Shown here: positions 6,522 through 34,036 of the stretch, in pieces
Position numbering within the stretch: the first letter of the stretch is position 1
How the letters are laid out: every line of letters begins with the position of its first letter
DNA from: Frigoriglobus tundricola
GTDB taxonomy: Bacteria; Planctomycetota; Planctomycetia; Gemmatales; Gemmataceae
Direction: 5' to 3'
NCBI RefSeq assembly: GCF_013128195.2
Contig: NZ_CP053452.2
Span: 3,348,001 to 3,412,000 of the forward strand
Length of the DNA stretch: 64,000 bases
Position numbers and translations under genes: made by a program
The notes under the pieces: generated by a model
What the model saw: the letters and a program-made list of their open reading frames with translations, nothing else
The model's database searches: none
What the model was told of the DNA's origin: nothing

Positions 6522-6947
6522 TCATGCGCCGGTCGACGGAGCGGCATTGGGGGTCGGCGGATACAGTGTGATCCGCAACGATGTGCCCACTCGGGCCATG
6601 CGCAGCAAGGTGTGGTTCGTCAGCTCGTTGTTAAACGCCCACGGCTCGGTTCCGCATTCGTAGCCGATGTCGAATTCCCTCAGACTACACCCCAACCACA
6701 GTGATTGAATGCTCACGTCGAATGACTCGATCGCATCCAGGATCTTGGAAATCGTTTGCTCGAGGTTGTCGCCTGGGTCGTCCGCAAAAGTGTTCAGTTC
6801 AAACCTCGCAGAGCAAGAGCCGTCATCGCCCGAGGTGACGTGCAGCGCGAAGACGTCGCGTGCCTCCAGCGCACGAGCCAGCGCGCCCAGGTCGTACGAT
6901 GCCACGAGGTCGAGATCGGTGTTGATATAACGGATCGGGGTCGTCAT
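6522..6947 (-). CDS. Hypothetical protein
   Basis: A 141-residue soluble protein, MTTPIRYINTDLDLVASYDLGALARALEARD in its N-terminal part. It is rich in Asp/Glu and has a predicted mix of helix and strand (DNLEQTISKILDAIESFDVSI; TSLRITLYPP at the end). No signal peptide or membrane segment. I do not recognise the family; the overall style resembles immunity-type or SMI-like small proteins, but that is only an impression. The ATG at 6947 is preferred over 6974 because the nine extra residues are basic and lack a ribosome binding site. It overlaps the next gene upstream by 125 bases in another frame. Confidence 0.6.
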   Translation of the reverse strand: MTTPIRYINTDLDLVASYDLGALARALEARDVFALHVTSGDDGSCSARFELNTFADDPGDNLEQTISKILDAIESFDVSIQSLWLGCSLREFDIGYECGTEPWAFNNELTNHTLLRMARVGTSLRITLYPPTPNAAPSTGA

Positions 6948-7257
6948 CGCTTTTCCCCGTTTTACTCGAACCAAGCCTCCGATATCCGCGACTTCTCACC
7001 CGCACCCAACTATCGTCGTTGATTGCGAGCCAGTGGCACTCCCATCTGCCATTCTTTTGTCGAAATCGACAGTGAATCCACGGGAGCCCGTCTTTATCAA
7101 CCTCGTACACCCGCACCGCCCGGCGCCGGGCGATGAGCCGCTCATACAACCGGCGTGTTTCCGGGTCGAACGTATAACCGGGCGCGTCCACACCGCTCGG
7201 CAACCGCACGATCCGGACGCGGTCACCGGCCCTCAAATTCTCCCAGCCGTCTGACAT
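6823..7257 (-). CDS. Small conserved planctomycete-type hypothetical protein
   Basis: Residues 1-88 (MSDGWENLRAGDRVRIVRLP, then RLYERLIARRRAVRVYEVDK, GLPWIHCRFRQKNGRWECHW and NDDSWVRVR) look like a compact SH3-like protein type that I associate with Gemmata-like genomes, where it ends soon after WVRVRPR. Here the frame instead continues for about 55 arginine-rich residues antisense-like through the start of the next gene. The native stop has therefore probably been lost by a small indel near 6990, or the overlap is genuine. Function unknown. Confidence 0.55.
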   Translation of the reverse strand: MSDGWENLRAGDRVRIVRLPSGVDAPGYTFDPETRRLYERLIARRRAVRVYEVDKDGLPWIHCRFRQKNGRWECHWLAINDDSWVRVRSRGYRRLGSSKTGKSDDDPDPLYQHRSRPRGIVRPGRAGSCAGGTRRLRAARHLGR

Positions 7258-7270
7258 CGCACCACCTCCC

Positions 7271-7711
7271 CTAATTCTTGATCTCCTTGAACCGGATGGT
7301 GATCGTGCGCGGGTTGTTGTCGGTGATGACCGCGTTCAGCGGTTGCTTGACGTGGTCCGCCTGGCCCAGGTGCGTGCGCTCTTCGCCCTTCAGTATGAAC
7401 GCGGTCACGTAGTACTTCGTGTTTTCCTTCCGTTCGCCCTTCGCCCCGATCGTGAACTCTTTTTTCGTTTCCTTGCCGGTCACGTGCGTAAAATCCTTGA
7501 TCTCCACCTTCTCCACGAGGTCCGCGGCCCTACCGGCGACCCGCGCGTAGAGCCGCAATTCGACGACGCGGCCGTCGAACGAGGCGACCTCCTTCGGCAC
7601 GACGACCGTACCGGTCACCTTCGTCGAGGGGTCGGGCTTCGGGTCGTCCGCGGGTGCGGCCGCGGTTAGCATAAAAACCAGGGCGAGCGGGGCGGCGCGG
7701 CGCGGGAACAT
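7271..7711 (-). CDS. Secreted hypothetical protein
   Basis: A 146-residue protein with a signal peptide (MFPRRAAPLALVFMLTAAAP, cleavage likely after ADD or APA). The mature part is beta-rich and charged: TKVTGTVVVPKEVASFDGRVVELRLYARV, and it ends NPRTITIRFKEIKN. The pattern of a short beta-sandwich with the phrase DGRVVELRLYA resembles YbaY-like lipoprotein domains, which is a weak comparison. Transcribed on the minus strand, divergent from the sigma factor at 7911. Confidence 0.65.
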   Translation of the reverse strand: MFPRRAAPLALVFMLTAAAPADDPKPDPSTKVTGTVVVPKEVASFDGRVVELRLYARVAGRAADLVEKVEIKDFTHVTGKETKKEFTIGAKGERKENTKYYVTAFILKGEERTHLGQADHVKQPLNAVITDNNPRTITIRFKEIKN

Positions 7712-7910
7712 GCCGGGGCTCCGGGGCGTACAAGGTATTGATTAAAACGATACGTCCCAAAGGTAGGGCCGACGACCGCGGACGTCGCAAACGTTCCCGG
7801 CCCTCGTAAAATGATAACCGATCCAACTGCTACCCGTCTGCGCCCGCGCCAGGTCCCCGGCGCGTAAGTCGTCGCCCGCGCAACCGGTATCACCCGCTGG
7901 GAAGTCCCGA

Positions 7911-8519
7911 ATGGCCGAGCCCCCGCTCACTCGCGTCACGCTGCTCGCCCGCCTGAAGGACGGGCGCGACGTCGATGCGTGGCGCGAGTTCGTGCAACTG
8001 TACGGCCCGGTCGTGTACCGGTTCGCCCGCAACCGCGGCCTCCAGGACGCCGACGCCGCCGACCTCATGCAGGACGTCATGCGGAGCGTCGCCCGCAACG
8101 CGCACCGCATGGAGTACGACCCCAAGCGGGGCACCTTCCGCGGCTGGCTGTACACGGTCACCCGGAACAAGATTTACAACTTCCTCAGCAGCCAGCGGAA
8201 CCGCCCCCGCGGCACCGGCGACGCGGACGCCCAGGAGCGCCTGGACGCCACCCCCGCCCGCGAGGAGGACGGCCCGGACGCCGACTGGGAGAAGGAGTAC
8301 CAGCGGCGGCTCAGCGCCCGGGCGATGGAACTGGTCAAGGGCGAGTTCCAGCCGAACACCTGGGCCGCGTTCTGGCAGACGGCGGTGGACGGCCGGGCCG
8401 CCGCGGAGGTCGGCGTGGCGCTCAAGATGAGCGCGGGCGCGGTGTACGTGGCCAAGAGCCGCGTGCTGGCCCGGCTGCGCGACGAGGTGCAGAAGATGAT
8501 GGAAGAGGAAGACAACTGA
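7911..8519 (+). CDS. ECF-type RNA polymerase sigma factor
   Basis: A 202-residue sigma-70-family protein. Region 2 is visible as FVQLYGPVVYRFARNRGLQDADAADLMQDV followed by FRGWLYTVTRNKIYNFL; region 4 as EVGVALKMSAGAVYVAKSRVLARLRDEV. This is the planctomycete ECF type that sits directly upstream of a Ser/Thr kinase gene; the kinase starts 67 bases downstream on the same strand. The kinase or its zinc-finger-like N-terminus is a plausible regulator of this sigma factor (inference from context). Confidence 0.88.
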   Translation: MAEPPLTRVTLLARLKDGRDVDAWREFVQLYGPVVYRFARNRGLQDADAADLMQDVMRSVARNAHRMEYDPKRGTFRGWLYTVTRNKIYNFLSSQRNRPRGTGDADAQERLDATPAREEDGPDADWEKEYQRRLSARAMELVKGEFQPNTWAAFWQTAVDGRAAAEVGVALKMSAGAVYVAKSRVLARLRDEVQKMMEEEDN

Positions 8520-8586
8520 TCGGCGAACCCGGCCGGTGGGTCCGCTCCACAGGCCCCGCGGGCCGAGCCCGCTCGGAAGCACACCC

Positions 8587-11058
8587 ATGCCTGAAACGAC
8601 GACGACCGCGTGCCCGCCCCAGGCCGACCTCGAGCGGCTGCTCAACGGGCGCTGCACCGAGGCCCGCAACGCGGCCCTGTGCGAGCACGTCGGCGCGTGC
8701 CCGGCGTGCCAGCAGCGCCTGGACCGGCTCGCCGGCTCGGGGTCCGACCTCGCCGAGCACCTGCGCGACGCCGACGCCGCGCCGGCGCCCAAGGACTCCG
8801 CGTACTGGCGGGCGATCGCGGACGCCGAGGACGAGCTGCGCAAGACGATCCTGTTCCCGCCCGGCGGCGAGTCGGACACGCCGCACCCGGAGGGCGACCT
8901 GAAGCTCGACTTCCTCCAGCCCGCGGACAAGCCCAACCGGCTCGGCAAGCTCGGGCCGTTCGACATCATCCGCGTCGTCGGCCGCGGCGGGATGGGCGTC
9001 GTGCTGCACGGCTACGACCCGTCGCTCGACCGCGACATCGCGATCAAGGTGATCGACCCGCAGCTCGCGAACAACGAGGTCGCGCGCCAGCGGTTCTGCC
9101 GCGAGGCCCGCGCCGCCGCCGCGGTCACGCACGACAACCTGGTCGCCGTCCACCAGGTGAACGAGGACGAGCCGTCCGGGCTGCCGTACCTGGTCATGCA
9201 GCTCATCAACGGCGAGTCGCTGGAACAGCGCCTCAAGCGGATCAGCAAGCTGAGCGTGCCGGAGGTCGCCCGGCTGGGGATGCAGGCCGCCGCCGGGCTG
9301 GCCGCGGCGCACGCCGGCGGGCTCATCCACCGCGACATCAAGCCCGGCAACATCCTGCTGGAAGCGCCCGCGGACCGCGTGAAGCTCACCGACTTCGGGC
9401 TGGCGCGGGCCGCGGAGGACGTGAAGCTCACCCGCACCGGGTTCGTCGCCGGGTCGCCGCTCTACATGGCCCCGGAACAGGCCCGCGGCGACGAGATCGA
9501 CCCGCGGTCGGACCTGTTCAGCCTCGGCAGCGTCCTTTACGAGGCGTCCACCGGCGTGGCCCCGTTCGAGGCGAAGACCCCGCTGGCGGTGCTGCGGCGC
9601 GTCTCGGACGAGACGCAGATGCCGCTCAGCCGCATCAACCCCGACGTGCCGAAGTGGCTCTCGGAGGCCGTGGACAAGCTGCTGTCGAAGGAGCCGGCGG
9701 GCCGGTACCAGACGGCGACGGAGGTGGCGGAGGTGTTCGCCTCCGGGCTGGTCGAGATGCACCTGCTCTCGCCGCTGGACGTGCCGGCGGAAGTGTGTTC
9801 CGCGTCGCGCACGGGCGTCCCGCGCACCCCCATCTGCTGGAAGACGGTCGGCGGCCGCGTGAAGCCGTGGGTCGGCGGAGCGGTCTTCGGCGGCCTCGTC
9901 GTCGGGCTGCTCTGGGCGCTGTTGGGACCGGGCACCCCGCCGACGCCCGAAACCCGCCCCGAGCAAGAACAACCCGCGGGGGCCGTTACGACGGGCGAGG
10001 AGCTGGCCAAAAAGCTCGAAGATCAAAAAACGACGGAGGTCGCGCTCGCGCCGGGAACGTTCGACCTCACCGCGTTTGTCGGCAAGCGCCCGGACCTCGT
10101 CGTGTCCACGCACGGCCCGACCCGGTTGATCCTGTCCGCCACCGACCCCGGCCCGAAGCCCCGCCTCACGCTGCCCGGCGAGTCCGGAACCGTGTGGGCG
10201 GTGTCGTTCCTGTCGAACGACCGGTTGGTGATGGGGATGGAGGACGGGTCCATCAAGATTTGGGACCTGGAGCACGGCGAAGCGATCCGGACCCTCGACC
10301 GGCAGGACGGTAACATCTGGACCGCCGACGTCTCGGCCGACGGCCAGTACCTGGTGACCGCGTCCGACGAGTCGTCGGTGACCTTCTGGAGCCTGAAGAG
10401 CTTCAAGCCCGAGTTCACGTTCCCGGAATCGAACTCGACCAAGGTCGCCAAGTTCAGCCCCGACGGTAAGCACCTCGCCACGGGCAACCGGAGCGGGATC
10501 GTGAAGGTGTGGGACTGGGCGAATCAGATCCCCTACGCCCAACTGCGCGGCCACCGCGGAACGGTCCACAGTCTGGCTTACAGTCCGGACGGCACCCGCC
10601 TCGCCAGCGCCGGCTCCGACCGGACGGTCAAGGTGTGGGACCTGAAGAAGGGCGTAGGCGCGTGGGAACTCGGGGAGGGGCCGGCCCCGTCGCTCGACAT
10701 GTCCCTGCACCGCGGGGCCGTGTACGCGGTCGCGTTCAGTCCGGACGGCAAGCGCCTCGTGAGCGCCGGGTGGGACGGCACCGTTCGCATCTGGGACGCG
10801 ATTACCGGTACCCAGCTCCTCCGGATCGCGGCGCACGATCAGGACGTGTGGTCCATCGCCTTCGGAGCGGGCGGCAAGTGGGTCGCCAGCGGCAGCTCCG
10901 ACGGCTCCGTAAAGGTGTGGGAAGTGGACACGGGCAAGGAGCTGTTCGCGTACCGCGGCACGCGGGCGTTCCACGTCGTCCGGTTCGCGCCCAACGGCAC
11001 CACGCTCGCCGCCGGCGGGCGCGACGGCACCGTAAAGGTGTGGGACCTCAAGAAGTAA
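8587..11058 (+). CDS. Membrane Ser/Thr protein kinase with WD40 propeller
   Basis: An 823-residue protein. Residues 25-45 hold an anti-sigma-like cluster (CEHVGACPACQ). The kinase domain spans about 124-395: GRGGMG at 132-137, K154 in IAIK, HRD at 248-250, DFG at 269-271, APE near 295. One membrane helix follows around 430-450 (GGAVFGGLVVGLLWALLG). The C-terminal part, probably extracytoplasmic, has WD40 repeats such as HRGTVHSLAYSPDGTRLASA and DRTVKVWDLKK; six or seven blades are visible. The propeller could sense or scaffold a partner. It is paired with the sigma factor at 7911. Start chosen at 8587 because earlier in-frame residues are unlike the family. Confidence 0.9.
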   Translation: MPETTTTACPPQADLERLLNGRCTEARNAALCEHVGACPACQQRLDRLAGSGSDLAEHLRDADAAPAPKDSAYWRAIADAEDELRKTILFPPGGESDTPHPEGDLKLDFLQPADKPNRLGKLGPFDIIRVVGRGGMGVVLHGYDPSLDRDIAIKVIDPQLANNEVARQRFCREARAAAAVTHDNLVAVHQVNEDEPSGLPYLVMQLINGESLEQRLKRISKLSVPEVARLGMQAAAGLAAAHAGGLIHRDIKPGNILLEAPADRVKLTDFGLARAAEDVKLTRTGFVAGSPLYMAPEQARGDEIDPRSDLFSLGSVLYEASTGVAPFEAKTPLAVLRRVSDETQMPLSRINPDVPKWLSEAVDKLLSKEPAGRYQTATEVAEVFASGLVEMHLLSPLDVPAEVCSASRTGVPRTPICWKTVGGRVKPWVGGAVFGGLVVGLLWALLGPGTPPTPETRPEQEQPAGAVTTGEELAKKLEDQKTTEVALAPGTFDLTAFVGKRPDLVVSTHGPTRLILSATDPGPKPRLTLPGESGTVWAVSFLSNDRLVMGMEDGSIKIWDLEHGEAIRTLDRQDGNIWTADVSADGQYLVTASDESSVTFWSLKSFKPEFTFPESNSTKVAKFSPDGKHLATGNRSGIVKVWDWANQIPYAQLRGHRGTVHSLAYSPDGTRLASAGSDRTVKVWDLKKGVGAWELGEGPAPSLDMSLHRGAVYAVAFSPDGKRLVSAGWDGTVRIWDAITGTQLLRIAAHDQDVWSIAFGAGGKWVASGSSDGSVKVWEVDTGKELFAYRGTRAFHVVRFAPNGTTLAAGGRDGTVKVWDLKK

Positions 11059-11071
11059 CGCGGACCAAGAC

Positions 11072-11208
11072 AACCCACCCCCCAGCCCCCCATTTGCTCC
11101 CCGGCCTGTCAGCAGAGCTTCTCGCGGGCCGGGGGAAGGGAGGGGAGCAAGACCTCCAACATTCGAGGGCCTTGCTCCCCTCCCTTCAGGGAGGGCTGGG
11201 GGTGGGTT
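11072..11208. repeat. C-rich inverted repeat element (AACCCACCCCCCAGCCCCCC)
   Basis: The left arm is at 11072-11090 and its complement (ggctgggggtgggtt) lies at 11194-11208. Between them is the second inverted pair gctcccctcccttc / gaagggaggggagc. A relative of the element occurs at 11879-12060, on the far side of the next gene. Convergent gene ends flank this copy. Confidence 0.65.
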
Positions 11209-11230
11209 CTTGGCAGACCGCCTCTCCCGC

Positions 11231-11854
11231 TCAATCGTCGTCCCGCCTGTTGAACTTGATCTTGCAGCCCGCGGCGGCGCTCGTCTCGGCCGTGTCGGCG
11301 GTCTTGCCCGCGAGCGCGTTCTTGACGGCCAGTTCCACGTACTTCGTCTTCGGCTCGCCCTCCGCCTTGTCATCGAAGGCGCCCATGTAGACCACTTTTC
11401 GGTCCTTGTTCAGCACGAAGCACTCGGGGGTGAACATCGCGCCGTAGGCGAGCGCGGTCTTTTGTGACGGGTCGTACAGGTAGGTGAAACCGAACTTGCG
11501 GCTCGTCGCCCGGTCCTTCATCGCCGGTAGCGCGTCGGCCTTACCGGTGTTCACGTTGATCGCCACGAACCCGACCTTACTGTCGGCCTTGTTGCACCCG
11601 GCCGCGAACGCGACCAGGCGCTCCTCGTACCCCTCCGCCACGATGCAACTGTTGCAGGTGAACACCACGACGAGGACGTCCTTGTCCTTGAAGTCGGCGA
11701 AGGCGTACTTCTTGCCGTCGGTGGCGTCGAGCTTGTCCCACGTCGGGGCGGCGTCGCCGATGTTGAGCTTCTTGTTGTACTTCCCCGCGCCCGCGGGCGC
11801 GGCGGCGAGGGCGAGGAGCACGACAACGGCCGAAAAACGAGTGAGGAGGGTCAT
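11231..11854 (-). CDS. Exported redoxin / peroxiredoxin-like protein
   Basis: A 207-residue protein with a signal peptide (MTLLTRFSAVVVLLALAAAP, cleavage near AGA). The mature domain has the AhpC/TSA-redoxin layout: GDAAPTWDKLDATDGKKY, then VLVVVFTCNSCIVAEGYEERL with the CxxC pair, FVAINVNT, and TPECFVLNKDRKVVYMGAFDD. It probably acts as an extracytoplasmic thiol-disulfide or peroxide-related protein. CNSC replaces the usual TxxC of peroxiredoxins, so a thioredoxin-like role is equally possible. The gene is flanked on both sides by related C-rich repeats. Confidence 0.82.
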   Translation of the reverse strand: MTLLTRFSAVVVLLALAAAPAGAGKYNKKLNIGDAAPTWDKLDATDGKKYAFADFKDKDVLVVVFTCNSCIVAEGYEERLVAFAAGCNKADSKVGFVAINVNTGKADALPAMKDRATSRKFGFTYLYDPSQKTALAYGAMFTPECFVLNKDRKVVYMGAFDDKAEGEPKTKYVELAVKNALAGKTADTAETSAAAGCKIKFNRRDDD

Positions 11855-20464: not shown

Positions 20465-21516
20465 GGCTCATGAGGCCGTCGGGGTGGACAGGGGCAGGCC
20501 CAGTAGTGTGCGGACCATGCCCGCAACGCCGACCTTGTTGTATGCCCATTGGAAGACGGCAACGTACTGGTGGAGGTAGTGCTTGCTGATCCCGCGGAAC
20601 GGTCGCAGGAACGTGCGGAGGGCCGCCCACAGGCCCTCGAGCGTGTTATCGTGGACCTCGCGGATCCCGTCCCCGTCGTCATCCCGAGCCCACTCCCGTT
20701 GGCCCGGGGTGTGGTTCACCGTGGCATGCCCGCGGCCCTCCGCGGACAGCCGCGCGTACCCCGACCACTCATCCGTGTATACGGTCGCGCCATCATCGGT
20801 ATGTTCGGTCACGAACGCGATCAGGGTCTCCTGGTCCGTTCGTTCGACGACCTCCAGGACGATGGCCCCGGTGTCCCGGCTCACCACCCCGACCACCGGC
20901 GGGCGGTCGTTGGCGAAGTTCCCGTGCCCGCGCCGCTTGTTGGCCCGGCGTCGGGGCGGGTCGTCCGGGTTCGGGTGCCGGACCCCTTTTTTCCCCCGCA
21001 TTCTGGAACATCTCGTCCGCTTCGGTCTCCGAGCCGGGGATCGCGCCGACCTGCGTGGCGGCTCCCGCGGCGCGTTCCTGGAACCGGTGCCGCAGATCCA
21101 GCAGGTGCATCCGATCGCACCCCAGTTCTCGCGCCAGTTGAGCGGTCGGGGTTCCTTGCGCGAACCCGCGGAAGATCAGAACCCACTGGGCCGGGGGCCG
21201 ACGGGTGCCGTGGAGCGGGGTTCCGGTGTACGCATTGAACACCCGACCGCAATGGGTGCATCGGTAGTCCAGGACCGGTGCCCGATGCCGGGCCTGAACC
21301 CCCATCCCATCGGACCGGTGGCACCGCGGGCACGACAGACCGTCGGGGTGCAGCAAATCGACCAGATACCGGTAGCACGCGCCTGGGTCCATCAGGTCCA
21401 CGATCGGGAAGTCCATCTCCCGGCCTCCAAAACCACGGCTACCCAACACCGGCGTACTCTAACGCTCGACCGGGGAATGGGAAAAGACCAGTTCCACCCC
21501 GACGGCCTCATGAGCC
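20465..21516. mobile_element. IS1595-family (ISXO2-like) insertion sequence
   Basis: A 1052-bp element bounded by perfect 24-bp inverted repeats: the left end (20465-20488) begins ggctcatgaggccgtcgggg and the right end (21493-21516) is its exact reverse complement. Flanks AACATCAC (20457-20464) and AACATCTC (21517-21524) are an 8-bp target duplication with one mismatch, the size expected for IS1595. The single transposase reading runs on the minus strand and its stop codon lies inside the left repeat. The element interrupts a TIGR02996/LRR gene. Confidence 0.92.
20468..21416 (-). CDS. IS1595-type transposase in two frames
   Basis: The N-terminal frame (start 21416, MDFPIVDLMDPGACYRYL) has the zinc ribbon CPRC...CTHCG, the LIFRGFAQGTPTAQLARELG helix and SETEADEMFQNAG, which includes the first catalytic Asp. 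The C-terminal frame (down to 20468) resumes with KKGVRHPNPDDPPRRRANKRRGHG, YTDEWSGYARL and the terminal WAALRTFLRPFRGISKHYL. The switch is at the run GGGGGAAAAAAGGGG near 20991-21005 and needs a +1 step (or loss of one A). The element is either frameshift-inactivated or expressed by slippage. Confidence 0.85.
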
Positions 21517-23867: not shown

Positions 23868-26800
23868 TCACGTCACTGGGAGCTGCCAGGGGACATCGAC
23901 GCGGGCGTGGGCCGGGTGGTCGTTGCCCATCTGCGCGTAGGCCTCACGCGCGGACGCGCCCAGTTGCGGCAGGTCGCCCAGCGGCACCTGCGGGTACTCG
24001 CGGTAGAAACAGATGTCGTCCGGCAGCGGCGCGGCGGTCATTTCCAGATCGGGCAGGGCGGTGCGGACCAGGCCCACGAGCCGCTCCCCGTCGGGACCGG
24101 GGGGGACGCCCATAACGACCATCTCGTACGGCCGCGCGCCCGCCGGCTTCAGGTCCGGCATCGCCTCGTCGAGCGCCTCGGCGAGCAGCGCCTCGGCGGT
24201 CCCGGTCTGGGTGCGGGAGCGGAAGAACACCGCGGCCGGGTCGGAGTGGTCGAGCTTCGTGTCCAGAAAGGCGCGGGCCTTCGTCAGCAGCAGCTCGCGG
24301 AACGCCGCGCCCTTCTCCGCCGGCTTCAGGCACACGTTGCCCAGGCCGCGGAACTTGCGGGTGATGTCCTTCTGGAGCGTCTGGTCGAAGGCGAGCAGGT
24401 CTTCGGGGGCCAGCCCGGCGAGGAACTGGTCGGCGGCGGCGTCCAGGTCCTTGCACCCGTCCGGCAGGATCATCTTGCCCGGCCCGGTGCGGGCGGCGGC
24501 GGCCTCGCCGGCCCTGCCCAGGACCGCGTGCATGTCGGCCAGGGCGGCCCGACAGCAGTTGATCTCCCGCAGGTACTCGGGCGAGTTGCCGAGGAGCCGG
24601 CGGTACACGGACAGGCACATCTCGAGCACGTGCAACTGGAGCCGCTTGCGCGGGTAGGACCGGAGCAGATCGACCACCTCGGCCGCGTTCGCCTTGCGGG
24701 CGACGGTCGCGCTGATGCCCGAGGCGCCCAGCGCGCCGATCGCCTGGATCAGCCGCCCGTAGCTGGTCCGCACCTCCTTGTCGAGGTCGGTGTGGACCGG
24801 CTCGAGCGATTCGATCTGGTGCTTCAGCTTCTCGCCGATCTGCCGCACCGCCTCCTCGGCGCCGGGGAGCCGGTACTGGGGCACTTCCAGGAAGGTCGCG
24901 GCCATCATCGCCGCGTGCCCCTCGACCTCTTTCACCAGCTCGTCGAACCGGGTGCTCAGGGTGACGGCCAGCGAGCTGGGGAGGACGTCGTTCTCGCACG
25001 GCGGCTTGCCGACGAGTTTGAGCAGCTGTTCGAGGACGGCCACGGACCCGTTGGCGTCCATGCGGCCGCCGGACGGGGTGCGGGTGCGGAGCGGGTCCAC
25101 GAGCGCGTCGAACACCCGCTCCGGCTCCTCCCGGAGCGCGCCGCGGACGGCCGCGGTGAACACCTCGAGGACCGACTCGAACGCCAGCTTCCGCTCCGCC
25201 CACTGCTGGGTGAGCCACTCGGCGATGGGCTCCCGCAGGTGGGCCGCTTCCTTCCCGGTCCACCGCTGGAGCTGGCGCTGGGCGAACCGCCGGGTGGCGG
25301 CGGCGAGCACCTCCGGGCGCGGCCAGCTCAGCCGGAACAGGCCGAACGTCTGGCACGCGGGGCCGGTCGCGGGGTACGCGTTGCGGTACACGTCCCGCCC
25401 CTCGTCGACCACGCGCCCGGTCGGCGTGAGCATCTCGTGGAACAGCGCGCGGGCGGCGGTCGCCACGACGGGCAGCGATTTGGCCGGGTCGGTGCCGCGG
25501 GGGAGCTCGAGGACCGCGACCCGGGCGAACGGGGCGTCCCCGTCGGTGATCGGCGCCTCGGCCTTGTCGAACGCCGTCTGGTACCGGGACCGCCGCGCCT
25601 GGAAGTGGTTCAGCTCGGCCAGGGCCGCGTACGCGTTGCCCAGCGCCGCCGAGCGCGGGGCGGCGGGGTCGGCCGGCGGGACGAAGAACACCCCGGCCAC
25701 CTCCGGCCGGAGGTAGCCGACCTGGCGCAGCTCGTGGCGGAGCAGGTAGGCGACGTCGAGGAACATGCCGCCGCCGGTGCCGCCGGCGAGGCCGGCGACG
25801 ACGTACGCGCGGGGGCGGTTGCTCCGGAGCCCGAGGCCGGTCGCCTTGTCCGCCTGCATCAGCGGGTCGTCGGTCAGGAACGTCTCGATCTCCTGCCGGA
25901 CCCGCTGGGCGATGGTGCGGTAGTGGTCGAACAGGGCGAGCCGGCCGAACGCCCGCACGCCGTTGGCCGGGCCGGGGTTGCGCGGCAGCTTGTACAGCGC
26001 GCCCGGCGGGAGCCACAGTTCCACCGGGGGCAGAGAGTCCCGCTGCATGTAGTGCGTGGAGCGGTTCAGCCGCGCGGACACCAGCTCCCGGGGCGTGAAC
26101 GCGACCGGGTTGTTGGGGGCCGACTCGACCGTCACGTCCGGGTCCGTGTCCACGCACAGGATGCGCACGTTCGGCACGCGGTCGGTGGCCCCGTACCGGT
26201 CCACGATCGACCGCTTGAGCTCTTCGGCCACCCGCCGGCCGGTCTCGCCCAGCGCGACGACGAGGGCCGGGAACAGGTCGCCGTCGCCGGTCTTCTCCGG
26301 CGGGGCGATGCCGAGGCTCCCCATGCGGCCGGTCTGGAAGACCACCGGGCGGTTGAGCGTCTGGGTGGGGTTGTGCCCGGTCGCCGGCCCCGGGGTCACC
26401 AGCCGCCCGCCGGACCCGCCGGGAACCAAGAGCGCCGGTGTCGAGCCGGGCCCGCCCTGGCCGGGCTTGATGAGCGGCGGCAGCGCCGCCGGGGGCGGGG
26501 TCCGGTTGTTGAGCGGCCCGGTCGGGCCGTTGGGATCGGCCCCGAGGCGGCCGGACCCGCCCGACCCGGTCCCGGCCATCCGCGTCGCCTGGACCGAGTC
26601 GGCCAGCGCGTGCCCCGGCGGCCCGAGCATGGTCGCGGTGCCCGAACCGGGCACGTTCCGGGGCGTCGATTGCGTCGGCGTCACCGCCGGCGGCAGCCCG
26701 GACATTTTGAGGGCCCGGACCAGCTCGGTGCAGCTCGGCCACCGGTCGTCCGGCTTCTTGGCCAGCCCCCGGCCGATGACCGCCCGGTCGTTGATCGGCA

Positions 26801-27524
26801 GCGCGGACATGTCCGGCGTGCCGTTGATGTGCTGCATCAACAACTGGCGCGTGTTCGCGCCGTTGAACGGCCGGAACCCGGTGAGCAGCTCCTGGAAGAC
26901 GATGGCGAGGCTGTACTGGTCCGAGAAGCGCGACACCCAGCCCTCGAACGTCTCCGGGGCGGCGTACACGGGGGTGACGCCGCCGGTCACGGTCGCGCGC
27001 ACGCCCTCCAGCACCTTCGCCAGCCCGAAGTCGGCCACCTTGATGTGGTTGAACACCAGGAACAGGTTCTGCGGCTTCACGTCGAGGTGCTGGATCTGAT
27101 AGTGGTTGTTCATCAGATCGAGCCCCTCCGCGGCCTCCTCCATGTACCGCAAGAGCTCGTCGCGCGGGATGCCCTGGAGCCCCTGGCCGCGGCACTCGCG
27201 GAACCGGTCCCACAGGTTGCGATCGGCCAATTCCATCACGATGATGAGCTGGCCGTCGATGACGCGAAACTGTTCGAGCGAGAGGATGTACGGGTGGCGG
27301 ATGTTCTTGACCCGCTCCAGCGCCTTCGCCTCCTGCTCGGCCGGGCGGCTGTCCTCGTCCATCGCGTCGAGGTCGCCGAAGACGAACTTCACGGCCTTGA
27401 GCAGGCCGCCGGGCGCCTCGACCTTCCACACCTCGCCGAACCCGCCCCGACCGAGGCGCTCGATCAGCCGATAGCCCTTCAGAGGGCCGGGCAGTTCTTC
27501 CTGGCTGACCAAGCGAACCGGCAT
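23868..27524 (-). CDS. Ser/Thr protein kinase fused to a tubulin/FtsZ-like GTPase domain
   Basis: A 1218-residue cytosolic-looking protein. Kinase, residues 18-275: GRGGFG at 25-30, K46, HLD at 146-148 in the catalytic loop (HLDVKPQN, no Arg before the Asp), DFG at 165-167, APE at 189-191. A Pro/Gly-rich linker covers about 280-410. From about 418 a Rossmann-like GTPase begins: LVVALGETGRRVAEELKRS, then VAGLAGGTGGGMFLDVAYLL at 576-595, which has the tubulin signature loop GGTGGG, as in the tubulin-like family PF13809. The remainder (600-1218) is helical and unfamiliar. No membrane segment. Suggests a kinase controlling or reading a tubulin-like assembly. Confidence 0.88.
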   Translation of the reverse strand: MPVRLVSQEELPGPLKGYRLIERLGRGGFGEVWKVEAPGGLLKAVKFVFGDLDAMDEDSRPAEQEAKALERVKNIRHPYILSLEQFRVIDGQLIIVMELADRNLWDRFRECRGQGLQGIPRDELLRYMEEAAEGLDLMNNHYQIQHLDVKPQNLFLVFNHIKVADFGLAKVLEGVRATVTGGVTPVYAAPETFEGWVSRFSDQYSLAIVFQELLTGFRPFNGANTRQLLMQHINGTPDMSALPINDRAVIGRGLAKKPDDRWPSCTELVRALKMSGLPPAVTPTQSTPRNVPGSGTATMLGPPGHALADSVQATRMAGTGSGGSGRLGADPNGPTGPLNNRTPPPAALPPLIKPGQGGPGSTPALLVPGGSGGRLVTPGPATGHNPTQTLNRPVVFQTGRMGSLGIAPPEKTGDGDLFPALVVALGETGRRVAEELKRSIVDRYGATDRVPNVRILCVDTDPDVTVESAPNNPVAFTPRELVSARLNRSTHYMQRDSLPPVELWLPPGALYKLPRNPGPANGVRAFGRLALFDHYRTIAQRVRQEIETFLTDDPLMQADKATGLGLRSNRPRAYVVAGLAGGTGGGMFLDVAYLLRHELRQVGYLRPEVAGVFFVPPADPAAPRSAALGNAYAALAELNHFQARRSRYQTAFDKAEAPITDGDAPFARVAVLELPRGTDPAKSLPVVATAARALFHEMLTPTGRVVDEGRDVYRNAYPATGPACQTFGLFRLSWPRPEVLAAATRRFAQRQLQRWTGKEAAHLREPIAEWLTQQWAERKLAFESVLEVFTAAVRGALREEPERVFDALVDPLRTRTPSGGRMDANGSVAVLEQLLKLVGKPPCENDVLPSSLAVTLSTRFDELVKEVEGHAAMMAATFLEVPQYRLPGAEEAVRQIGEKLKHQIESLEPVHTDLDKEVRTSYGRLIQAIGALGASGISATVARKANAAEVVDLLRSYPRKRLQLHVLEMCLSVYRRLLGNSPEYLREINCCRAALADMHAVLGRAGEAAAARTGPGKMILPDGCKDLDAAADQFLAGLAPEDLLAFDQTLQKDITRKFRGLGNVCLKPAEKGAAFRELLLTKARAFLDTKLDHSDPAAVFFRSRTQTGTAEALLAEALDEAMPDLKPAGARPYEMVVMGVPPGPDGERLVGLVRTALPDLEMTAAPLPDDICFYREYPQVPLGDLPQLGASAREAYAQMGNDHPAHARVDVPWQLPVT

Positions 27525-28093: not shown

Positions 28094-28807
28094 ATGAGCA
28101 CCACGCCCGGACTATTGGTCAGCGTGCGGTCGGCGGACGAAGTGGCAGCGGCCCTCGAAGGCGGGGCCGACTTGATCGACGTGAAGGAGCCGGCCAAGGG
28201 TCCGCTCGCGCCGGCCGAGGCCGAGGTGGTCGCGGCCGTCATCGACGCGGTGGACGGGCAGGTGCCCGTGAGCGCCGCGCTCGGCGAGTGGTCGCCGAAC
28301 GCGATCACCGAAGCGCACTGGCACCTCGAGCTGCCGCTCCAGTACGTCAAGTGGGGGCTCGCGGGGTACGCGGCCACGCCCGGTTGGGGGGAAGACCTGC
28401 TCGACACCCGCCGCGAGCTGCCGATCGCGACCGAGATGGTCGCGGTCGCCTACGCGGACTGGGAGCGCGCCAAGTCGGTGCCGCCGACGGAGGTGGCGAA
28501 GTTCGCCAAGCGGTTCCGGTTCAAGGCGTTCCTGCTCGACACCTGGGGCAAGGACGGCAAGACGCTGCTCGATTTCATGTCCGCGAAGGAGGTCGCGGCC
28601 CTCGTTGACGGCCTGAGACGCGTGTACACGACCGTTTGTGTCGGCGGCTCGCTCCGGCCGGAGCAGATGAAGCAGCTCAAGGGCGTCGTGCCCGACTACT
28701 TCGCCGTGCGGACCTCCGTGTGCGCCGCCGGGAAGCGCGACGGGGTGATCGACGCGACCCGCGTGAAGAAGTGGAAGGAGCTGCTCGCGGGGGTGAAGGT
28801 GTCGTAG
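28094..28807 (+). CDS. mfnB: (5-formylfuran-3-yl)methyl phosphate synthase-like protein (MfnB family)
   Basis: A 237-residue TIM-barrel protein. GLLVSVRSADEVAAALEGGADLIDVKEPAKGPL is the family opening; the lysine K31 in IDVKEP corresponds, as far as I recall, to the Schiff-base lysine of archaeal MfnB. AFLLDTWGKDGKTLLDFM is the second signature block and VCVGGSLRPEQM the phosphate-binding end. In methanogens the enzyme makes a furan precursor of methanofuran from glyceraldehyde 3-phosphate. Planctomycetes have archaeal-type C1-transfer cofactor genes, so a role there is plausible. ATG at 28094 is the first family-like residue. Confidence 0.85.
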   Translation: MSTTPGLLVSVRSADEVAAALEGGADLIDVKEPAKGPLAPAEAEVVAAVIDAVDGQVPVSAALGEWSPNAITEAHWHLELPLQYVKWGLAGYAATPGWGEDLLDTRRELPIATEMVAVAYADWERAKSVPPTEVAKFAKRFRFKAFLLDTWGKDGKTLLDFMSAKEVAALVDGLRRVYTTVCVGGSLRPEQMKQLKGVVPDYFAVRTSVCAAGKRDGVIDATRVKKWKELLAGVKVS

Positions 28808-31894: not shown

Positions 31895-34036
31895 TCACTT
31901 CGCCTTGATCGCTGCGAAAATCGCGTCGGCGAATTCGAGCGCTTCGCGCCCGCCGGACGCGGTGACCACCAGCTTGGTACTCTCGGTCCGGTCGGTAACC
32001 ACCCCCGGCGGCTGCCATTTGATCCCGGACCTCTCACCGACGAGGTCCGGGAACCCCCGCTTCAGTGGATCACAATCGGCCGCCCGCTTCCCCTTCAGCA
32101 CGCCCTGCCCGACGAGCACGCCCTGGCCCAGGCCGATTGCGGCCACCGGGCGACCCGCCTTCTGCATCCGGGAGATCAGCGCTTTCGCCGCCCGCGCGCC
32201 GCGGCCGGTGGTGTACTCCTCGAACCGGTTGCCGGCGAACACCACCGCGGCGCACTCGGACACGTCGGTAGTCTCGGTCAACTTGATGTCGATCGGCACC
32301 GGGTCGGCGCCCTTGGCCCCCCCTTTGTGGTCCGGCGCGTTGAGGTCCGGCACAGACCGGTCGCCATCGGTGGACGTTGTGACGACGGTCAGCCCCTTCG
32401 CCTCGAGCCGCTCGCGGACCGGAACGTAGTCGTGCAGCCAGACGCCTTTGCTCGGCAGGACGTACAGCACCTTCGCGCGCGCCTTCGGGGGCGGCGTGAT
32501 CTCGGTCGGCGGCACCCGCGGGTTCGGCTTTTCGTCCTTCGCGCCCTTGTCGTCCGTTCCGCCGTTCGGTGGGGCCGCCGGCCCCGTCTTTGCGGTCGCG
32601 GCCGGATCGGCCGGGGCGTCGTTCGAGGTGGTGCGCGCCCTCTTCCCGCTCAGCGCGATGATGGCGCCGACGAACACCAGCGCGGCGACGGCGCCGCCGA
32701 GGACGGGCCACCGGAGGCGCCGCCACGGCGACGCGCGTTTCTTCCCCCGCTTCGCCCGCTTCAGCCGCGGGGTCTCGGCCAGCGTCGCCGCGCCGGGCAC
32801 GGGCGCCGTGTCGGACGACGCCCCGCTCGCGACGGGCGGCGGCGTGACGACGGACGCGTCCACGATCTCGAAATTCGGCTCCTTCGGCGAGTCGGAGCGG
32901 GTGTACGGCAGGAGCGCGGCGGCGACCTCGGCGGCCGTCTGGTAGCGGTCCGCCGGCTTCTTCGCCATCATCTTCGCGAGCACGGCCGCCAGCCCCTCGG
33001 GCACGTCCTTGCGGGCGCCGTGGACCGACGGCGGTTCGGCGTGGGTGTGGGCGATCAGCTTGTCGAGGTGCGTGGACGCGCTCTGGAAGGGCGGGCGGCC
33101 GGTGAGCAGGAAGTACAGCGTGCAGCCGAGCGAGTAGATGTCGCTCCGCGGGTCCACGTCGTGCGAGTTCTTCGCCTGTTCCGGGGAGAGGTAGTCCGGG
33201 GTGCCCATGACCAGGTTCGGGTTGGTCACGCCGGCGTTCGCGAGTTCCTTCGCGGCGCCGAACGGCACCCGCCCGCTCTGGGGGGCGGGCGGCTCCTCGT
33301 CGTCCGCGTGCCCGAAGCGGGCGAGCCCGAAGTCGAGGATCTTGACCTGCCCCTTCCGGGTGACCATCAGGTTCTGCGGCTTGATGTCGCGGTGAACCAT
33401 CCCCTTATCGGCCGCGTGCTGGAGCCCGAGGGCGGCCTGTCGGGTGAAGTTACTGGCCATCGGCGCCGGCAGCGGCCCCTTCTTCGCGATCAGCCGGTCG
33501 AGGCTGACGCCCTCCACGAACTCCATGACCAGGAAGTGCGCGCCGCCGGCCTCCCCGGTGTCGTGGGCGAGGATGACGCTGGGGTGGTTGAGCTGGGCGG
33601 CGGCGCGGATCTCCTTGCGGAACCGCTCGACGGCGCTGGCCCGCGCGGTCAGGTGCAAGGACACCACCTTGATCGCGATGACCCGGCCCATGAGCCGGTC
33701 TTCGGCCTTGTAAACGGTGCCCATCCCGCCGGCGCCGAGTTCACTGATGATGCGGTACCGCGGGTGGTCGGCGAACCCGGCCGGGAGCCGGGGCGGGGGG
33801 GAGCCGATGGTCCCCGGGGTGAGCGACCGGGGCGGGCCGCCGGAATGAACCGTGGCCGGTGCGACGGCCGCATCGCGGGCCAGTCCGGCGAGCGAGTCGT
33901 TCGGCACCAGTTGCAGCACGCGACAGCACTCTTCACACGCGCCGACGTGACCCGCGACGGTGGCCGATTCCTGCTCCGCCAGCTCCCCGCGGACGAACGC
34001 GGCCAGAGTTTCCGGTTTCGGGCACGCAACAGACAT
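31895..34036 (-). CDS. Membrane Ser/Thr kinase with degenerate DJ-1/PfpI-like C-terminal domain
   Basis: A 713-residue protein. An anti-sigma-like H30/C34/C37 cluster (GHVGACEEC) opens it. Kinase about 93-370: GAGGMG at 101-106, K123, HRD 215-217, DFG 235-237, then SPEQ. A basic stretch and a membrane helix (VLGGAVAALVFVGAIIAL, about 455-475) follow. The last 170 residues (KVLYVLPSKGVWLHDYVPVRERLEAKGL... CAAVVFAGNRFEEY ... VAAIGLGQGVLV) match the DJ-1/PfpI amidotransferase fold, but the nucleophile-elbow Cys-His is Gly635-Leu636, so the domain is probably a binding module. The gene follows the sigma factor at 34217 and is likely co-transcribed with it. Confidence 0.88.
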   Translation of the reverse strand: MSVACPKPETLAAFVRGELAEQESATVAGHVGACEECCRVLQLVPNDSLAGLARDAAVAPATVHSGGPPRSLTPGTIGSPPPRLPAGFADHPRYRIISELGAGGMGTVYKAEDRLMGRVIAIKVVSLHLTARASAVERFRKEIRAAAQLNHPSVILAHDTGEAGGAHFLVMEFVEGVSLDRLIAKKGPLPAPMASNFTRQAALGLQHAADKGMVHRDIKPQNLMVTRKGQVKILDFGLARFGHADDEEPPAPQSGRVPFGAAKELANAGVTNPNLVMGTPDYLSPEQAKNSHDVDPRSDIYSLGCTLYFLLTGRPPFQSASTHLDKLIAHTHAEPPSVHGARKDVPEGLAAVLAKMMAKKPADRYQTAAEVAAALLPYTRSDSPKEPNFEIVDASVVTPPPVASGASSDTAPVPGAATLAETPRLKRAKRGKKRASPWRRLRWPVLGGAVAALVFVGAIIALSGKRARTTSNDAPADPAATAKTGPAAPPNGGTDDKGAKDEKPNPRVPPTEITPPPKARAKVLYVLPSKGVWLHDYVPVRERLEAKGLTVVTTSTDGDRSVPDLNAPDHKGGAKGADPVPIDIKLTETTDVSECAAVVFAGNRFEEYTTGRGARAAKALISRMQKAGRPVAAIGLGQGVLVGQGVLKGKRAADCDPLKRGFPDLVGERSGIKWQPPGVVTDRTESTKLVVTASGGREALEFADAIFAAIKAK

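What the first reader, a model, noticed from the sequence alone, without database searches (positions are those of the whole stretch)
23868..27524. Protein kinase fused to a tubulin/FtsZ-like GTPase
One 1218-residue frame joins a complete Ser/Thr kinase (Lys46, HLD at 146-148, DFG at 165-167) through a Pro/Gly-rich linker to a domain with GETGRR at 426 and the tubulin-like loop AGLAGGTGGGMFLD at 577-590. The kinase is a non-RD type. The C-terminal 600 residues have no familiar repeats. Such a fusion suggests direct phosphorylation of, or response to, a cytoskeletal-like polymer in an organism group whose canonical division machinery is unusual. This is the strongest candidate for an undescribed system in the window.
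Basis: partly seen in the sequence, partly recalled or inferred. Interest (0 to 1): 0.85.

Follow-up and report, generated by a model that had tools for sequence, protein, structure and literature searches.

The report
Planctomycete protein kinase–tubulin fusion protein
The gene is real and encodes a Ser/Thr protein kinase joined to a tubulin-like domain, but this fusion has been reported in planctomycete bacteria since 2010; what this work adds is that the whole tubulin fold appears to be present, split by a long helical arm, and that this kinase type keeps turning up beside c-di-GMP signalling parts.

Summary
One 1218-residue minus-strand gene (23868-27524) joins an intact non-RD Ser/Thr kinase to a Tubulin_2/FtsZl1 domain (PF13809, E 3e-41). 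It is not an undescribed system: planctomycete kinase-FtsZl1 fusions were reported in 2010, 2023 and 2024.

Tubulin_2 genes are near-universal in Gemmatales (42 of 43 relatives), usually two to three per genome, and patchy elsewhere in the class (5 of 15). This genome has no FtsZ.

New here:
(i) AlphaFold (pLDDT 90) gives a complete two-domain tubulin fold (CetZ, Z 25.8). Its last strands come from the final ~90 residues, behind a ~365-residue coiled-coil insert; the 2010 analysis saw no related C-terminal domain.
(ii) One ancient paralogue clade (24 sequences) lost a residue of the GTP T4 loop but keeps an intact kinase.
(iii) In a sister clade an FHA-EAL gene lies nearby in all 15 loci (12 directly adjacent), and this genome's three closest other kinases end in a PilZ-like tail.

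Most likely role: a cytosolic, assembly-gated kinase scaffold. Sequence, predicted fold and gene context are shown; GTP binding, assembly and kinase regulation are inferred. A general role as FtsZ substitute is unlikely.

The parts
23868..27524 (-). Complete gene for the kinase-tubulin fusion, 1218 aa, cytosolic (no hydrophobic segment that could span a membrane)
26706..27473 (-). Ser/Thr protein kinase domain, residues 18-273: G-loop GRGGFG, Lys46, Glu65, HLD146-148 (non-RD), DFG165-167, APE189-191
   Evidence: Pfam Pkinase E 3.2e-30; motifs; catalytic residues kept in nearly all homologues
26295..26669 (-). Pro/Gly-rich linker, residues 286-410 (38% P+G), the least conserved segment across the family
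   Evidence: conservation and dN/dS
25260..26294 (-). Tubulin fold, first part, residues 411-755: nucleotide-binding domain, core helix, then predicted H8-S7-H9
   Evidence: PF13809 E 3.1e-41; AF2 model pLDDT 89.9; CetZ match Z 25.8
26229..26261 (-). T1-like loop, VVALGETGRRV (residues 422-432)
   Evidence: aligned by hhalign to the T1 loop of E. coli FtsZ, P 0.0014
25755..25796 (-). T4 loop, AGLAGGTGGGMFLD (residues 577-590), the tubulin/FtsZ signature loop
24150..25247 (-). Helical/coiled-coil insert, residues about 760-1125, with two long helices (about 49 and 73 residues)
   Evidence: AF2 model of this part alone, pLDDT 90.1; no convincing PDB match
23916..24131 (-). Tubulin fold, last part, residues 1132-1203: predicted S8-H10-S9-S10 and a final helix, completing the second domain of the fold
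   Evidence: secondary structure order in the model; CetZ/tubulin alignments run from model residue 7-8 to 791-808
28094..28807 (+). Divergent neighbour, 4-HFC-P synthase (MfnB, methanofuran biosynthesis); conserved synteny, no clear functional link
   Evidence: PF04476 E 3.2e-54; homologue upstream and divergent in 25 loci

Best explanation
A member of the known planctomycete kinase-FtsZl1 (Tubulin_2) family. It most likely works as a cytosolic signalling scaffold: the tubulin-fold domain binds a nucleotide (probably GTP) and associates with itself or its paralogues, the helical arm spaces subunits or presents partners, and this assembly brings kinase domains, tethered by the flexible linker, together so that they activate one another and phosphorylate partners. 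In at least one sister clade the likely reader is an FHA protein carrying an EAL (c-di-GMP phosphodiesterase-like) domain. Shown: domain content, predicted fold, conservation, paralogue pattern, gene neighbourhood. Inferred: GTP binding, assembly, kinase regulation by assembly, any c-di-GMP link.
For: Both domains pass curated cut-offs. The kinase keeps its catalytic residues in nearly all of 100 homologues (exceptions L050, L054; L087 is cut short) and is the most constrained segment (dN/dS 0.12-0.29; GTPase part 0.26-0.47), so kinase output is a conserved function. The tubulin part models as a complete two-domain tubulin fold; T1 glycines, DTD and T4 are conserved in most members. The P/G-rich linker suits a tethered kinase. 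A clade of 24 sequences, including this genome's paralogue C, has a one-residue T4 deletion but an intact kinase, as expected of a mixed assembly of nucleotide-binding and non-binding partners or of a scaffold. An FHA-EAL gene lies nearby in all 15 loci of one 100%-supported clade, in 12 on the same strand within 200 bases, in both orders. This genome's three next-closest kinases (53-59% identity) have a PilZ-like tail.
Against: No biochemical data. The FtsZ/tubulin T7 catalytic motif (NxDxxD/E) is not recognisable; the equivalent loop reads TPxGxxxDxxR, with no conserved Asn/Asp in the predicted core helix, so GTP hydrolysis and even guanine specificity are uncertain. The ~365-residue arm might block protofilament contacts. 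An FHA-EAL fusion is absent from this genome, and in 9 of 15 cases the EAL domain is degenerate, so a c-di-GMP link is indirect for the window gene. PilZ matches are just below Pfam's cut-off.
Confidence: 0.5

Rival explanations
1. A cytoskeletal polymer for membrane remodelling (as proposed for FtsZl1 in 2010), whose own kinase phosphorylates the filament to control assembly or disassembly. In Gemmata this would serve the extensive internal membranes.
For: Complete tubulin fold; FtsZl1 was proposed for membrane remodelling (PMC2875224); Tubulin_2 near-universal in Gemmatales, 42 of 43 relatives.
Against: T7 catalytic motif not recognisable and a T4-deleted paralogue clade; no hydrophobic segment in the window protein; none of the vWA, GTPase or OmpA partners reported for FtsZl1 operons appeared among the window neighbours or conserved neighbour clusters examined; the kinase is more constrained than the tubulin part.
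Confidence: 0.27
2. A non-polymerising nucleotide switch: the tubulin fold is a monomeric or dimeric GTP/GDP sensor that turns the kinase on or off, without a filament.
For: No recognisable T7 motif and, in one clade, a shortened T4 loop; large insert between predicted H9 and S8.
Against: The complete second domain of the fold is retained; characterised superfamily members form filaments, as the 2010 authors also noted.
Confidence: 0.18
3. Part of an anti-phage or conflict system, as in GTPase/tubulin conflict systems or kinase-based defence systems (MADS6, PD-T4-6).
For: Kinase domain resembles MADS6 and PD-T4-6 models; tubulin domains occur in predicted conflict systems (PMC7159879).
Against: Only the kinase domain matches; the MADS6 score is 83.5 bits against a cut-off of 460; gene order, copy number and inheritance look vertical across the order; no defence partner recognised among the neighbours examined.
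Confidence: 0.04

Closest known systems
FtsZ-like 1 (FtsZl1) family, Pfam Tubulin_2 PF13809, specifically the planctomycete kinase-FtsZl1 fusions (Makarova & Koonin 2010, PMC2875224)
   Same: Same tubulin-like domain, coiled-coil region, helical C-terminal region, and N-terminal kinase fusion in planctomycetes
   Different: No vWA/GTPase/OmpA operon seen here; modelling indicates that the C-terminal end completes the tubulin fold, which the 2010 analysis did not recognise
CetZ / FtsZ / tubulin (PF00091)
   Same: Predicted two-domain fold (CetZ 3zid_B Z 25.8, rmsd 3.5, 299 residues aligned) and T4-type GTP loop
   Different: No PF00091 match, T7 catalytic motif not recognisable, ~365-residue helical insert between predicted H9 and S8, N-terminal kinase
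Hanks-type bacterial Ser/Thr kinases (PknB-like)
   Same: All catalytic motifs
   Different: Non-RD (HLD); belongs to a planctomycete kinase subfamily with six members in this genome, three fused to tubulin and three with a PilZ-like tail
Tubulin-containing GTPase-centred conflict systems (PMC7159879)
   Same: Tubulin-family domain with a C-terminal coiled-coil or helical region
   Different: Here fused to a kinase; no conflict-system partner genes seen next to it

Membership tests
FtsZl1 / Tubulin_2 (PF13809) | Match to PF13809 above the curated cut-off | tested here: met
   142.3 bits against 27, residues 421-750
FtsZl1 / Tubulin_2 (PF13809) | Tubulin-type T1 and T4 loops | tested here: met
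   LGETGRR and AGGTGGGM; glycines conserved across 44-60 homologues; T1 aligned to FtsZ
FtsZl1 / Tubulin_2 (PF13809) | Extended coiled-coil and helical region after the GTPase domain | tested here: met
   AF2 models, helices of about 49 and 73 residues
Planctomycete kinase-FtsZl1 fusion subgroup | N-terminal protein kinase on the FtsZl1 protein | tested here: met
   Pkinase E 3.2e-30 at 18-236; the same architecture in many planctomycete loci
vWA/FtsZl1 membrane-remodelling operon | Neighbouring vWA and P-loop GTPase genes | tested here: not met
   None among the ten window neighbours scanned, nor among the conserved neighbour clusters annotated; not every neighbour was scanned
Canonical FtsZ/tubulin/CetZ family | PF00091 domain | tested here: not met
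   No PF00091 match in the protein or in the genome
Canonical FtsZ/tubulin/CetZ family | Two-domain tubulin fold | tested here: met
   VIA-align Z 25.8 to CetZ, 21-22 to tubulins and FtsZ; predicted model only
Canonical FtsZ/tubulin/CetZ family | T7 catalytic loop NxDxxD/E | tested here: inconclusive
   Equivalent loop reads TPxGxxxDxxR, no canonical motif; the equivalence rests on the model
Canonical FtsZ/tubulin/CetZ family | GTP-dependent protofilament formation | not testable with these tools
   Needs purified protein
Hanks-type Ser/Thr kinase | Lys (VAIK), Glu (helix C), HxD, DFG, APE | tested here: met
   K46, E65, HLD, DFG, APE all present
MADS6 / PD-T4-6 defence kinases | Full-length model match | tested here: not met
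   NCBIfam MADS6 83.5 bits against a cut-off of 460; PADLOC matches are to the kinase part, none to the tubulin part

The most novel reading that the evidence does not exclude
A signalling class not yet recognised as such, in which a tubulin-fold assembly, built from up to three paralogues of which one has a degenerate nucleotide site, gates a tethered Ser/Thr kinase, and the kinase's phosphothreonine output is read by FHA proteins that set c-di-GMP: a cytoskeleton-like assembly acting as a second-messenger control device in bacteria without FtsZ.
Probability: 0.2. Interest if true: 0.8.

Novelty: new member of a known kind. Interest (0 to 1): 0.42.

Why it matters
The architecture is not new, but the papers found here report no tested function for it after fifteen years. 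Three facts make it testable: the tubulin fold appears complete, the family splits into T4-intact and T4-shortened paralogues that coexist in one genome, and one clade sits beside an FHA-EAL gene. If the tubulin part controls the kinase, it would be a tubulin relative used as a switch for signalling rather than as a cytoskeleton, in bacteria that have lost FtsZ.

Tried and rejected
Undescribed system: rejected, literature from 2010, 2023 and 2024. Chance open frame or antisense artefact: rejected. General replacement for FtsZ in division: rejected as a general role, Tubulin_2 absent from 10 of 15 other genomes of the class. Defence system: only the kinase matches. Helical insert alone against PDB: Foldseek best E 0.12, VIA best Z 7.5, typical of any long coiled coil; hits to pore-forming proteins and chemoreceptors are read as generic helix matches. 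Sequence-only search of the PDB with the tubulin part found nothing (best E 1.4). Plasmid records: kinase-type matches, no record covering 80% of the query. FHA-EAL in the own genome: separate FHA and EAL matches, no fusion. Viral structure library: phage tubulin/FtsZ homologues only, best E 5e-5. hhalign with E. coli FtsZ aligned only T1 to S2, so the T7 and C-terminal assignments rest on the model alone. The MfnB neighbour was considered as a functional partner, but conserved synteny explains it more simply.

Full report
Observation. The minus-strand frame 27524-23868 encodes 1218 residues. Pfam gives Pkinase at 18-236 (E 3.2e-30) and Tubulin_2 PF13809 at 421-750 (E 3.1e-41). NCBIfam and PADLOC match only the kinase part, far below full-model scores for NCBIfam. 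The protein has no hydrophobic segment long enough to span a membrane.

Already described. Makarova & Koonin 2010 (PMC2875224) defined FtsZl1 and state that four planctomycete members have an additional N-terminal protein kinase domain. PMC9871819 says the same of Tubulin_2 proteins in Planctomycetes. [quoted passage not shown] A Gemmata massiliana genome paper lists FtsZl1 among division- and cytoskeleton-related proteins (PMC4672568).

Distribution. This genome has three Tubulin_2 genes. All 18 same-genus relatives, 17 of 18 others in the family and all 7 others in the order have at least one, most often two or three; only 5 of 15 other genomes of the class do. A genome-collection scan found 449 relatives; in the 79 loci listed, every record that names a lineage is planctomycete. 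No PF00091 protein exists in this genome, whereas 13 of 14 controls have one.

Conservation and paralogues. The kinase keeps its catalytic residues in nearly all of 100 homologues; L050 is a pseudokinase, L054 lacks the kinase and L087 is cut short. Kinase identity to the window protein is mostly 52-91%, against 22-75% for the tubulin part. dN/dS is 0.12-0.29 for the kinase and 0.26-0.47 for the GTPase part (L088 and L030 give the same values and count once; dS at this GC content is rough). The tree (FastTree, 98 rows) separates the window clade, a second clade with L039, L062 and L065, to which this genome's copy B belongs by similarity, and a clade of 24 (100% support) in which the T4 loop has lost one residue (for example GGSGGM for GGTGSGM); this genome's copy C is in it.

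Structure. AlphaFold2 of residues 411-1218 with 44 homologues gives pLDDT 89.9. Foldseek finds tubulins and FtsZ (best E 1.9e-5); VIA-align gives CetZ 3zid_B Z 25.8, 299 of 342 residues at 3.5 A, and tubulins and FtsZ at 21-22, with aligned model ranges from residue 7 or so to 791-808. From the order of secondary structure I infer: nucleotide domain, core helix, H8, S7, H9 in residues 411-755; helical insert about 760-1125; S8, H10, S9, S10 and a final helix in 1132-1203. The 2010 paper could not identify T6-H7 or a related C-terminal domain; the model suggests both are there. The insert folded alone (pLDDT 90.1) has no convincing relative in the PDB. The T7 equivalent reads LTPTGRVVDEGRDV here and TPxGxxxDxxR in consensus, with no NxDxxD/E motif; GTP hydrolysis is therefore uncertain. 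Profile comparison with E. coli FtsZ aligns T1 and the S2 'DTD' segment only.

Neighbourhood. The window gene is divergent from a 4-HFC-P synthase (MfnB) gene whose homologue keeps that place in 25 loci; amino-acid-kinase-like and hydantoinase-like genes follow in some. In one 15-member, 100%-supported clade (Pirellulales and relatives) every fetched locus has an FHA-EAL gene, 14 within 2.6 kb of the fusion gene and 12 on the same strand within 200 bases, before or after it; no locus of the other clades has it. A response-regulator-GGDEF-CBS gene lies divergently beyond it in several. EAL motifs are intact in six of the fifteen FHA-EAL proteins and degenerate in nine; most GGDEF copies of this clade are degenerate. 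A reviewer of the 2010 paper had noted one such EAL neighbour in Pirellula staleyi. In this genome the three kinases closest to the fusion kinases (53-59%) are not tubulin fusions; one reads through to a region with RxxxR...DxSxxG and a PilZ match just under the cut-off, and the other two show similar sequence in another frame.

Interpretation. The most constrained part is the kinase; the tubulin fold, linker and helical arm look like the regulatory and scaffolding part. I favour an assembly-gated kinase scaffold (0.5) over a membrane-remodelling filament (0.27) and a monomeric nucleotide switch (0.18). Shown: sequence, predicted fold, conservation, context. Inferred: nucleotide binding, assembly, regulation of the kinase by assembly, the c-di-GMP link.

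Verdict. A real and well-conserved protein, a new member of a family described in 2010, with some new structural and contextual detail that makes its function testable.

Noticed in passing
L005 (G000:C1 about 3528000), paralogue B: The second kinase-tubulin copy of this genome is split by a frameshift in a GC-rich stretch; orthologues in other genomes are intact. Sequencing error or recent decay.
   Followed up: partly
L168 and L169 (G000:C1 about 5748000 and 4239000): Two kinases with a PilZ-like tail appear to have the tail in a different frame from the kinase; with paralogue B that makes three of six members of this kinase subfamily, which suggests indel errors in the assembly.
   Followed up: partly
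L050 (G039:C59) 7896-11336 +: Homologue with a pseudokinase (HGRLK, DWG) and a ruined T4 loop, yet kept as one long open frame.
   Followed up: no
L054 (G005:C120) 6755-10402 -: A Tubulin_2 protein of 1216 codons without a kinase in a same-genus genome.
   Followed up: no
window 31895-34036 -: Ser/Thr kinase fused to a DJ-1/PfpI domain.
   Followed up: no
window 28094-28807 +: MfnB (4-HFC-P synthase), conserved divergent neighbour of the fusion gene in 25 loci.
   Followed up: partly
L121 1180-3099 + and L133 7686-9512 +: Kinases of the same subfamily without tubulin or a detected PilZ domain, with apparently hydrophobic, membrane-like C-terminal ends.
   Followed up: no
L153 1753-4413 +: Two kinase domains in tandem followed by a PilZ-like domain in one planctomycete protein.
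   Followed up: no
window 20468-21001 -: ISXO2-like (IS1595) transposase domain.
   Followed up: no
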